Shown here piece by piece: positions 32,701-37,632 of a DNA stretch of 64,000 nucleotides. How positions within the stretch are numbered: position 1 is the stretch's first letter; each line of letters starts with the position of its first letter. Made by a program: the position numbers and the translations under genes. Source of the stretch: a virus; the IMG/VR virus record IMGVR_UViG_3300021959_000028, positions 1 to 64,000 of that record. One strand, 5' to 3'. A model generated the notes under the pieces. That model saw only the letters and a program-made list of their open reading frames with translations. It made no database searches and was not told where the DNA came from.

Positions 32701-32769
32701 TTGAGTTATACTCAAAATGGCTTGTTTTGAGCCTATTTCTACGCACTTTTCTCCCGTTTTGTTAAATAC
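32701..32769 (+). promoter_or_regulatory. Leader with alternative hairpins and late promoter before prohead core gene
   Basis: TTGAGT/ACTCAA (32701-32715) and CTCAAAA/TTTTGAG (32711-32731) share bases and cannot form together. TTAAATAC (32762-32769) lies 47 bp before the ATG at 32816, which has a strong TAGGAGA ribosome-binding site. The segment 32663-32815 contains no gene. Confidence 0.5.
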
Positions 32770-32815
32770 ATATGACAGCCTTACCATAGGTAAAACATTT
32801 ATTAGGAGAAAACAA

Positions 32816-33805
32816 ATGGCAGATTTAACCAAATTTGAAAAGATGCTAGAACTTCTTGTCAATGAAGATAAAGAAGCAGCAGAAGAATTATTCCACGAGA
32901 TTGTAGTAGAAAAATCACGTGACATTTACGAATCACTACTAGAAGATGATGCAGATCTAGAAGAAGATACTGACGAAGAAGTTGAAGAAGCAACTGACGA
33001 AGAAGTAGACGAGTCAGACGACGAAGATCTAGACGAAGCAACTGACGAAGAAGTAGACGAGTCAGACGAAGAAGTTGACGAAGGTTTTGACCTAGACGAG
33101 TTTGAAGTTGAAGCAGATCCAATGGATGACATGATGGGTGACATCGAAGCAGGCGACGACGAAGACGAAGGCGACGACGAAGAAGACGGCGACGACGAAG
33201 AAGACGGCGACATCGAAGATCGTGTTATGGACCTTGAAGACGCACTAGAAGACCTAAAAGCAGAATTTGAAAAAATGATGGACGGTGACGAAGGCGACGA
33301 CATGGACGACATGGATGCAGACGACGAAGAAGAAGCTGAAGAAGAAGCAATGGCTTTTGAATCAGACGACGAAGAAGTTGAAGAAGCAGCAGACGAAGAA
33401 GTTGAAGAAGCAGCAGACGAAGAAGTTGAAGAAACTCAAAAATCAGCTGGCGAAACAATGCGTGAGTATGTTGAAAAAGTTGCAGGCGGACACGGTGCAG
33501 AAACTAAAGGTACAGCTGAAAACGGTGCAAACACTAAATCAGCAGTAGCTGGTAAAAACGACATGGGCGGTACAACTGCTAACATCGCAAAAGCTGAAGT
33601 AGCTAACGATCCAGAAGCAGGCGCAGGTTCAACTGTAAAAGGCTCAGCACTAAGTGATACAAGTGCAAAAGAAGATTCGGCTGGTAACATCAATGTTCCA
33701 GGCGGTAAAGCAGCTAAAGCTGGTAAAGCAGAAGCTGGACATGGCGCTGAGAAAAAAGGCAAGCCAGAAACTGCTGATAACAAAACCCCAGTTGTGGGCA
33801 AGTAA
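32816..33805 (+). CDS. Acidic prohead core protein (gp68-like position)
   Basis: I start the gene at ATG 32816 (MADLTKFEKMLELLVNEDKE) because TAGGAGA lies 8 nt upstream; the frame opens earlier at 32717 but that region is leader. The product is 329 residues. After a helical N-terminus (about 45 residues) comes a very acidic stretch (about 46-210) of Asp/Glu repeats with one helical break (EDRVMDLEDALEDLKAEFEK). The C-terminal third is neutral to basic, Gly/Ala/Lys/Thr-rich (AGGHGAETKGTAENGANTK). Position between gp20 and gp21 and the composition suit a scaffold/core protein, comparable in place to T4 gp68 (141 residues). The polyacidic tract could fill the prohead and be degraded by gp21. Confidence 0.75.
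   Translation: MADLTKFEKMLELLVNEDKEAAEELFHEIVVEKSRDIYESLLEDDADLEEDTDEEVEEATDEEVDESDDEDLDEATDEEVDESDEEVDEGFDLDEFEVEADPMDDMMGDIEAGDDEDEGDDEEDGDDEEDGDIEDRVMDLEDALEDLKAEFEKMMDGDEGDDMDDMDADDEEEAEEEAMAFESDDEEVEEAADEEVEEAADEEVEETQKSAGETMREYVEKVAGGHGAETKGTAENGANTKSAVAGKNDMGGTTANIAKAEVANDPEAGAGSTVKGSALSDTSAKEDSAGNINVPGGKAAKAGKAEAGHGAEKKGKPETADNKTPVVGK
32987..33069 (+). repeat. Internal 35-bp direct repeat in prohead core gene
   Basis: 32987-33021 and 33035-33069 are identical over 35 bp (period 48), encoding EATDEEVDESDE-type units. Confidence 0.85.
33368..33415 (+). repeat. 24-bp tandem repeat in prohead core gene
   Basis: Two perfect tandem copies of a 24-bp unit encoding DEEVEEAA, followed by a partial third copy. 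Confidence 0.85.
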
Positions 33806-35582: not shown

Positions 35583-36746
35583 ATGTCAGAACTACTAGAA
35601 TCACGCTGGCAGGACACCAAAACAGCTCTTTTAGAAGGCCTACAAGGTAACAAAAAGTCTGTAATGGCTGCCACACTAGAAAACACACGCAAGTACTTGT
35701 CAGAGAGTGCAACAGCGGGTGCAACAAGCGCAGGTAACGTAGCTACACTTAACCGTGTAATTCTACCAGTTATCAGACGTGTAATGCCAACAGTTATTGC
35801 AAACGAGCTAGTTGGTGTACAACCAATGACTGGTCCAGTTGGACAAATCCATACTCTACGTGTTCGCTACAGCGACACAGACAATGGTGCAACAGCTGGT
35901 GAAGAAGCACTAAGCCCATTCAAAATTGCTGAGTCATACTCAGGTGCTCCAGGCACATCTGCTGCACCAAGTTCAACAGCATCACTAGAAGGTGAAGCTG
36001 GTAACAGAATGTCAATTCAAATCTTGAAACAAACTGTTGAAGCGAAAACACGTAAGCTATCAGCACGTTGGACATTCGAAGCAGCACAAGATGCTAATGC
36101 AATGCACGGTATCGATGTAGAAGCAGAAATCATGGCAGCTCTAGCACAAGAAATTACTGCTGAGATTGACCAAGAAGTTCTAGCTTCTCTAGGCTCACTA
36201 GCAGGTAACGCTGCTGAAACTTATGATCAAACAGCAGTTTCAGGTACAGCTACTTTCGTAGGTGACGAGCATGCAGCTCTTGCTGTTCAAATCAACAGAG
36301 TATCAAACTTAATTGCACAGCGTACACGCCGTGGTGCAGGTAACTGGGCAGTTGTTAGCCCATTCGCGCTAACAATCCTACAGTCTGCAACAACTTCAGC
36401 GTTTGCTCGTACAACAGAAGGTACATTCGAAGCACCAACTAACACTAAAATGGTTGGTACATTGAACAATGCAATGAAAGTATATGTAAACACATATGCA
36501 GCAGACAACGCACCAGTACTAATTGGTTATAAGGGTACTTCAGAGTCAGACGCAGCAGCGTTCTACTGCCCATATATCCCACTAATGAGTTCAGGTGTTG
36601 TCCTAGATCCAGGCACATTCGAGCCAACAGTATCGTTTATGACACGTTACGGTTATGTTGAGCTATCGAACACTGCTTCGTCTCTAGGTAACGCAGCTGA
36701 CTACCTAGGTAAAGTTGATATTGCCGCAGGTGTAACATTCAGCTAA
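35583..36746 (+). CDS. 23: Major capsid protein gp23
   Basis: A 387-residue HK97-fold capsid protein homologous to T4 gp23 (521) but much shorter, as in marine T4-like phages. Landmarks: TLNRVILPVIRRVMPTVIAN, ELVGVQPMTGPVGQIHTLRV, the ARWTFEAAQD segment, and YVELSNTASSLGNAADYLGK near the C-terminus. LSE at residues 39-41 before Ser42 is the likely gp21 cleavage site, giving a pro-peptide of about 41 residues against 65 in T4. The upstream GAGGAGAT ribosome-binding site is strong. A rho-independent terminator lies 22 bp after the stop. Confidence 0.97.
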   Translation: MSELLESRWQDTKTALLEGLQGNKKSVMAATLENTRKYLSESATAGATSAGNVATLNRVILPVIRRVMPTVIANELVGVQPMTGPVGQIHTLRVRYSDTDNGATAGEEALSPFKIAESYSGAPGTSAAPSSTASLEGEAGNRMSIQILKQTVEAKTRKLSARWTFEAAQDANAMHGIDVEAEIMAALAQEITAEIDQEVLASLGSLAGNAAETYDQTAVSGTATFVGDEHAALAVQINRVSNLIAQRTRRGAGNWAVVSPFALTILQSATTSAFARTTEGTFEAPTNTKMVGTLNNAMKVYVNTYAADNAPVLIGYKGTSESDAAAFYCPYIPLMSSGVVLDPGTFEPTVSFMTRYGYVELSNTASSLGNAADYLGKVDIAAGVTFS

Positions 36747-36767: not shown

Positions 36768-36796
36768 AAAATAGGCCCTACGGGGCCTATTTTTTT
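36768..36796 (+). terminator. Rho-independent terminator after gp23
   Basis: AAATAGGCCC (36769-36778), loop TACG, GGGCCTATTT (36783-36792) with a run of seven T (36790-36796). It is a strong intrinsic terminator that closes the head gene unit. Confidence 0.92.
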
Positions 36797-36818
36797 GACA
36801 TTTTTTTATAAAAAGTGG

Positions 36819-36846
36819 TTGACATTTGTTTGTAAGATGTTATATT
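36819..36846 (+). promoter_or_regulatory. Sigma70-type promoter of the small RNA
   Basis: TTGACA (36819-36824), 16-bp spacer, TATATT (36841-36846). A perfect 8-bp inverted repeat GTTATATT/AATATAAC (36839-36857) covers the -10 box and could act as an operator. A second TTGACA at 36795-36800 has no -10 at the right distance. Confidence 0.7.
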
Positions 36847-36851
36847 AATAA

Positions 36852-37101
36852 TATAACAAGACGTTGTTATATGGGTTGGCGCTAACAATTTCCACTCTAG
36901 AGGAGATAAGCGCACTTGGTTAGGGGTAGTGCCCGGCGTAGAGTTTGGAGACAAGCAGTACGCACACTGCGATACTAAGCAGAACTGAGGTTCTAAGCGA
37001 TATGACAGAAAGGTATCTGGACGCTTAGTTAGAGGTAAACCCAAGTCCTCTACCCACCCTTAATTTAAAAGCCCGATGCTTAACTGTGTCGGGCTTTTTC
37101 T
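36852..37101 (+). ncRNA. Probable independent non-coding RNA (about 250 nt) downstream of gp23
   Basis: The segment has its own promoter and intrinsic terminator and no credible coding frame. Local helices include a 5' stem ATATAAC/GTTATAT (36851-36857 with 36866-36872), GCGCT/AGCGC (36879-36883 with 36909-36913), GCACT/AGTGC (36912-36916 with 36928-36932), GCAGT/ACTGC (36955-36970), AGAAC/GTTCT (36981-36994), TAAGCG/CGCTTA (36994-36999 with 37022-37027) and TAGAGG/CCTCTA (37030-37035 with 37047-37052). Alternatives compete: CTAAGC occurs twice (36975 and 36993) facing one GCTTAG, and CTCTAC (37048-37053) also complements GTAGAG at 36938-36943. I recognise no known RNA family; tRNA, tmRNA, RNase P and 6S signatures were not found. 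Confidence 0.75.
37067..37101 (+). terminator. Rho-independent terminator of the small RNA
   Basis: AAAAGCCCGA (37067-37076), a 12-nt loop, TCGGGCTTTTT (37089-37099). It has a strong G-C stem with a T run. Confidence 0.92.
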
Positions 37102-37108
37102 TTATTAG

Positions 37109-37209
37109 ATAAATACTTGTGTCAGATAGTGTGCCGCAAGGCGGACTTATGCTGTCCCAACAGCGTAGCGGCTAGAACCCGCATCGGACTTCTATAAAGG
37201 AGAAAACAA
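37109..37209 (+). promoter_or_regulatory. Late promoter ATAAATAC and long structured leader
   Basis: ATAAATAC (37109-37116) restarts transcription right after the RNA terminator. The leader of about 85-90 nt contains GCCG/CGGC-type pairing near 37132-37143 and GCTGT/ACAGC with loop CCCA (37151-37164). It ends with AAAGGAGAAA before the ATG at 37210. Confidence 0.6.
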
Positions 37210-37632
37210 ATGGGAAGACCATTAAATAAAAGATATTTTGGCCCACCAACACCGGGCGGAAACGAAATTAAAGTACAGTTTTGGAACGGATCAGCTTCAG
37301 TTAACGGATGGATTGTAAAGCAAGTAGGATCAAAAAGATTCCTATGTTCAGACGGTTCAAACGAAGAAGTTTGTGTTCTAGTAGACAAAGCTTCAGCTGC
37401 TATTACAGCAGGAGAAATGACAATTACAGTTCTTGATGATACTGCAACAGCACGTCAAGTAACAAAAATTGCAGGACGCAAAGCTACACTTGATACAGGT
37501 GCAACAACTGCATGGACGTTTGATGATGCAAACAACGATGATAAAGTTGAAATGGAAGAAGCAGGCGACGATACTACTATTGATGCAGGCGGTACAGACG
37601 AAGACGACTTCGAAACAGACGATCCAGCATAA
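37210..37632 (+). CDS. Small virion structural protein, MGRPLNKRYFG family
   Basis: A 140-residue protein starting MGRPLNKRYFGPPTPGG, an N-terminus I associate with virion structural proteins of marine T4-like phages. Residues about 20-100 look like a small beta-barrel. The last 35 residues are very acidic (DDANNDDKVEMEEAGDD). It has its own late promoter, a long leader and a strong ribosome-binding site directly after the capsid block, pointing to high late expression. A capsid-decoration role is possible; position and size are the only support. Confidence 0.75.
   Translation: MGRPLNKRYFGPPTPGGNEIKVQFWNGSASVNGWIVKQVGSKRFLCSDGSNEEVCVLVDKASAAITAGEMTITVLDDTATARQVTKIAGRKATLDTGATTAWTFDDANNDDKVEMEEAGDDTTIDAGGTDEDDFETDDPA

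What the first reader, a model, noticed from the sequence alone, without database searches (positions are those of the whole stretch)
36768..37101. Self-contained small-RNA cassette directly after the major capsid gene
A strong terminator, a sigma70-type promoter, about 250 nt with no coding frame but many helices, and a second strong terminator follow each other in 334 bp. Late genes lie on both sides and use ATAAATAC promoters. The RNA would thus be made by the unmodified host holoenzyme, before or independently of late transcription, insulated from gp23 and from the next gene. It resembles no RNA family I know. Possible roles: antisense or sponge RNA against host or phage messages, a polymerase-binding RNA, or a packaging/assembly RNA.
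Basis: partly seen in the sequence, partly recalled or inferred. Interest (0 to 1): 0.8.

Follow-up and report, generated by a model that had tools for sequence, protein, structure and literature searches.

The report
Stand-alone manA RNA in T4-like phage
Just after its main capsid gene, this aquatic phage carries a complete small-RNA gene with its own start and stop signals; the RNA belongs to the known but unexplained 'manA' family, which is catalogued as a control element of neighbouring genes, yet here and in many relatives it looks like an independent RNA.

Summary
Between gp23 and the next gene lie a terminator, a sigma70 promoter (36819-36846), a folded RNA without conserved coding frame, and a second terminator (37067-37098). 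The claim that it resembles no known family is wrong: 36854-37061 is a full-length Rfam manA RNA (RF01745, 80.8 bits, E 4e-21). The fast whole-window scan missed it. manA is filed as cis-regulatory, a riboswitch candidate of unknown ligand.

What is new is the architecture. In relatives of this phage all 24 copies have the promoter and 18 of 20 a terminator 3-12 nt after the RNA. In 21 sequences 26 of 31 predicted pairs show double compensatory changes. No antiterminator is evident. The next gene keeps its own late promoter and a second RNA leader (freshwater-2); 14 relatives lack the cassette. In cyanophages manA also starts at a near-consensus promoter, but then usually runs into unrelated genes or tRNAs; directly after gp23, P-RSM1, S-SSM5 and P-HM1 carry the insulated form.

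Best reading: an autonomous, probably trans-acting phage RNA transcribed by host sigma70 polymerase. Independence of the unit is strongly supported; the trans role is inferred and its target unknown.

The parts
35583..36746 (+). gp23 major capsid gene, upstream neighbour
   Evidence: PHROG 138 major head protein, E 5e-100
36768..36793 (+). intrinsic terminator of gp23
   Evidence: 11-bp stem plus T-tract; present in relatives with and without the cassette
36819..36846 (+). sigma70-type promoter TTGACA-N16-TATATT with extended -10
36854..37061 (+). manA RNA, RF01745, model positions 1-192 of 192; transcript expected about 36853-37100
   Evidence: cmscan 80.8 bits against gathering 55.2, E 4.3e-21; 1.4e-22; covariation
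36854..36869 (+). P1 hairpin at the predicted 5' end of the transcript
   Evidence: alignment; fold
37067..37098 (+). intrinsic terminator 6 nt after manA
   Evidence: folds independently of manA
37109..37116 (+). ATAAATAC late-promoter-like motif of the next gene, outside the cassette
37130..37212 (+). freshwater-2 RNA RF02980, leader of the next gene, outside the cassette
   Evidence: 75.7 bits; found in 42 of 50 records
37210..37632 (+). next gene, 140-aa MGRP... protein, no PHROG match

Best explanation
The segment is an autonomous gene for a structured non-coding RNA of the manA family (RF01745). Host sigma70 holoenzyme starts at about 36853, transcribes roughly 245 nt and stops at the terminator at 37067-37098. 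The product is a compact RNA: a 5'-terminal hairpin, several helices with a probable loop-loop contact, and a terminator hairpin as its 3' end. Because the RNA ends before the next gene, and that gene keeps its own promoter and leader, the RNA most likely acts in trans, probably by offering its folded core to a host or phage protein (or small ligand) rather than by base-pairing to a message. Shown: family identity, conserved fold, conserved promoter, conserved terminator, dispensability for the neighbouring leader. Inferred: that it is transcribed, that this happens early, that it acts in trans. Not known: the target.
For: Identity. Promoter in 24/24 lineage copies. Terminator in 18/20 against 2.8 expected, and in 32 of 40 gp23-linked copies with sequence in a pattern-sampled set (my count; partly overlapping). 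The two remaining copies of the 20 are L026, where a tRNA-Gly follows directly, and L038. Covariation: 91.9% of cells paired, 167 double-change cells against 55.5 +- 6.2 in shuffles and 9-35 in slid controls. No clear antiterminator complementarity (mean z -0.53 over 17). Natural cassette-less alleles: gp23 stop to next ATG is 160-219 nt in 14 relatives and 441-463 nt with the cassette alone; the late motif and freshwater-2 stay. L013 and L034 keep terminator-like remnants, which suggests loss by deletion. Same insulated layout after gp23 in cyanophages P-RSM1 (124.6 bits), S-SSM5, P-HM1. What follows manA across copies: dozens of protein clusters, gp32 the commonest, and tRNA-Asn or tRNA-Gly.
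Against: No expression data. Rfam and the discovery paper class manA as cis-regulatory (PMC2864571). In the sampled cyanophages manA is mostly a leader without terminator (1 of 81), commonly of gp32, which fits a cis role there. A conserved terminator after a structured RNA is also the layout of an attenuator. Three of 17 terminator arms show more complementarity to manA than average shuffles (z about -1.7 to -2.8).
Confidence: 0.6

Rival explanations
1. Cis-acting attenuator or riboswitch: manA senses a ligand and the terminator at 37067 is its expression platform, controlling the freshwater-2/MGRP gene downstream.
For: Rfam type Cis-reg; riboswitch candidate in PMC2864571; order promoter-RNA-terminator-gene; manA commonly 5' of genes in cyanophages.
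Against: Little antiterminator complementarity; in most of the 17 copies the terminator pairs only with itself. Downstream gene has its own late motif and leader after the terminator and persists without manA in 14 relatives. Downstream partners are unrelated and include tRNAs.
Confidence: 0.2
2. A 5'-leader module: manA protects or positions the 5' end of the transcript it heads (stability, processing, ribosome access), and the terminated form is a by-product or relic.
For: manA begins within a few nt of a near-consensus promoter in nearly all copies and heads very different transcripts including tRNAs; P1 hairpin at the predicted 5' end.
Against: In the window's lineage the transcript ends 3-12 nt after the RNA in 18 of 20, so there is nothing to protect but itself, while structure and terminator are both maintained.
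Confidence: 0.13
3. Antisense or sponge RNA that base-pairs with host or phage messages.
For: Size and terminator are typical of bacterial small RNAs (general knowledge).
Against: Most helices vary in sequence while pairing is kept, and conserved loop bases appear to be used in a loop-loop contact (columns 84-87 with 136-139); no target search was run.
Confidence: 0.05

Closest known systems
manA RNA motif (RF01745)
   Same: Full-length match above the curated cut-off; same fold; T4-like phages; promoter directly at the 5' end.
   Different: Described as 5' UTR element and riboswitch candidate; here ended by its own terminator. Most relatives of this lineage score 36-54 bits, below Rfam's cut-off of 55.2, so Rfam under-calls this branch.
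T4 stable RNAs C and D (general knowledge, not tested)
   Same: Phage-encoded stable non-coding RNAs of unknown function near tRNA genes; several manA copies directly precede tRNAs.
   Different: No homology tested; T4 RNAs lie in the tRNA cluster, not after gp23.
freshwater-2 RNA (RF02980)
   Same: Adjacent structured RNA in the same intergenic region.
   Different: Ends on the start codon of the next gene, hence a true leader; not part of the cassette.

Membership tests
manA RNA RF01745 | covariance-model score above the gathering cut-off | tested here: met
   80.8 against 55.2 bits, positions 1-192 of 192
manA RNA RF01745 | conserved secondary structure | tested here: met
   26 of 31 predicted pairs with double changes in lineage relatives plus Mosig
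manA RNA RF01745 | cis-regulatory position in the 5' UTR of a gene (Rfam type; a functional label, not part of the covariance model) | tested here: not met
   own terminator after the RNA; next gene has own late motif and leader and persists without manA. The sequence-and-structure membership stands; the functional label does not fit this copy.
riboswitch with terminator platform | mutually exclusive antiterminator | tested here: not met
   mean z -0.53 for complementarity over 17; terminator self-contained in most
riboswitch | ligand binding | not testable with these tools
   needs in-line probing
6S RNA, CsrB-like sponges and other Rfam families | covariance-model match | tested here: not met
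   no other family reaches its cut-off in the segment
tmRNA or tRNA | ARAGORN model | tested here: not met
   none in the window

The most novel reading that the evidence does not exclude
manA is not a riboswitch but a class of free-standing, trans-acting phage RNA shared by T4-like phages of cyanobacteria and of heterotrophic bacteria, made by host sigma70 polymerase from a dedicated insulated promoter (in many cyanophages a terminator hairpin whose loop is the -35 box).
Probability: 0.45. Interest if true: 0.68.

Novelty: new variant of a known kind. Interest (0 to 1): 0.52.

Why it matters
manA has been a riboswitch candidate without ligand since 2010. If it is a free-standing RNA in a large branch of the family, looking for its ligand through the genes it precedes is a poor guide, and its function can be tested by deleting a self-contained cassette in cultured phages such as P-RSM1, S-SSM5 or P-HM1. 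It also suggests a conserved early RNA product in abundant marine phages.

Tried and rejected
Whole-window Rfam scan with curated cut-offs missed manA although it scores above its cut-off: a filter artefact. First promoter scan of cyanophage copies used a wrong offset and found almost none; corrected. First terminator scan missed hairpins with bulges (redone). Blastn of the segment in phage records gave only short chance pieces plus Pelagibacter phage Mosig, which does carry manA. The genome contigs pattern scan gave 12 scattered hits in unrelated phyla, not examined one by one. Conserved ORF on either strand: rejected. Palindrome over -10 to +10: enriched (8 of 23 against 6% shuffled) but AT-rich and imperfect, left open. 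Papers: no expression or ligand data on manA found; the library lacks most subscription journals.

Full report
CHECKING THE OBSERVATION. The RNA folds far better than shuffled sequence (-87.5 kcal/mol, z -4.2). A single promoter match is weak evidence in itself (49 found against 41 +- 7 in shuffles), so comparison with relatives is what confirms it.

IDENTITY. A permissive Rfam search of the 501-bp stretch gives manA RNA (RF01745) over 36854-37061, full model length, 80.8 bits against a cut-off of 55.2, E 4e-21, repeated by a separate search. The default whole-window scan had missed it. The next RNA, freshwater-2 (RF02980, 37130-37212), ends on the start codon of the next gene and is found in 42 of 50 records searched.

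THE LINEAGE. gp23-anchored viral contigs gave 24 manA copies including the window. All have TTGAC[ATC]-16/17-TATAxT-type promoters just before the RNA; among 23 distinct ones 21 score 10 or more of 12 against 1.2 expected. Eighteen of 20 have an intrinsic terminator right after it against 2.8 expected. L026 instead has a tRNA-Gly after manA. In 21 aligned sequences 26 of 31 predicted pairs carry double compensatory changes, 167 cells against 55.5 +- 6.2 shuffled and 9-35 in slid controls. This includes a loop-loop helix (UAGU with ACUA, alignment columns 84-87 and 136-139) in which one pair is A-U in 10 and G-C in 9 sequences. A manA pseudoknot was flagged as uncertain in 2010 (PMC2864571); I could not check from the text that it is the same one. 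Manual comparison with the cyanophage loops (GUGGUG and ACCA) is consistent with the same contact there.

INDEPENDENCE FROM THE NEIGHBOUR. In 14 cassette-less relatives the gp23 stop lies 160-219 nt from the next ATG; with the cassette alone it is 441-463 nt. The ATAAATA motif stays in the alleles inspected and freshwater-2 in most records. L013 and L034 keep what look like remnants of the cassette terminator, suggesting loss by deletion. Terminator arms have little more complementarity to manA than shuffled arms (mean z -0.53, three of 17 beyond about -1.7) and pair with themselves in most. This argues against a transcription attenuator.

THE WIDER FAMILY. A pattern scan gave 120 further loci, nearly all cyanophage-like manA copies, and annotated cyanophages were added. 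Eighty-three of 94 distinct upstream regions score 11-12 of 12 for a sigma70 promoter against 0.9 expected, and in 41 the -35 box lies in the loop of a terminator hairpin against about 3% in shuffles. Downstream there is usually no terminator (1 of 81 in the metagenomic set, 4 of 15 in the annotated set), and the next features are diverse: gp32 commonest, transaldolase, a purL-annotated gene, small unknown genes, tRNA-Asn and tRNA-Gly. Directly after gp23, however, P-RSM1, S-SSM5 and P-HM1 carry the terminated form. A second pattern scan for the window's type of manA, not anchored on gp23, found gp23 upstream in 45 of 79 loci and on no locus elsewhere; 32 of 40 gp23-linked copies with sequence have a terminator (counts partly mine, and partly overlapping the first set). 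Copies before gp32-like genes lack the terminator.

INTERPRETATION. The common denominator is an RNA that begins at the start of transcription behind a near-consensus host-type promoter; whether it is followed by a stop, a tRNA or a gene varies. A cis-regulator tied to the function of the downstream gene does not explain this easily; a product that matters in itself does. I therefore favour a trans-acting RNA, at 0.6 for the whole statement. That the window's copy is an independent transcription unit I hold at about 0.95. Timing (early) is inferred from the promoter type. The molecular target is not known.

NOVELTY. The family is known, so this is a new architectural variant of a known kind, and a challenge to the family's functional label. 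I found no paper that reports the terminated form, but the paper library is incomplete.

Noticed in passing
window 37130-37212: freshwater-2 RNA (RF02980) is a near-universal leader of the gene after gp23 in this lineage (42 of 50 records); the 140-aa product has no PHROG match.
   Followed up: partly
cyanophage loci such as L095, L135, L180, L261, L269, L273: Composite element: intrinsic terminator hairpin whose loop is the -35 box TTGACA and whose T-tract is the promoter spacer, directly before manA (41 of 94 distinct regions).
   Followed up: partly
window 36838-36858: Perfect 21-bp palindrome TGTTATATTAATAATATAACA over the -10 and start site; GCTAT/ATAGC versions in L017 and L026; possible operator.
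   Followed up: partly
L063:4290-4540: A relative without a detected manA has another promoter-like site and a structured-looking stretch in the same slot, with no credible Rfam match; by eye it resembles a divergent manA.
   Followed up: partly
L020:4234-4281: Glutamine riboswitch RF01739 in the same gp23-downstream slot, upstream of manA; the slot appears to be a cargo hotspot.
   Followed up: no
window 32717-33805: Long ORF of highly acidic repeats (DEEVEEA...) before the prohead protease gene.
   Followed up: no
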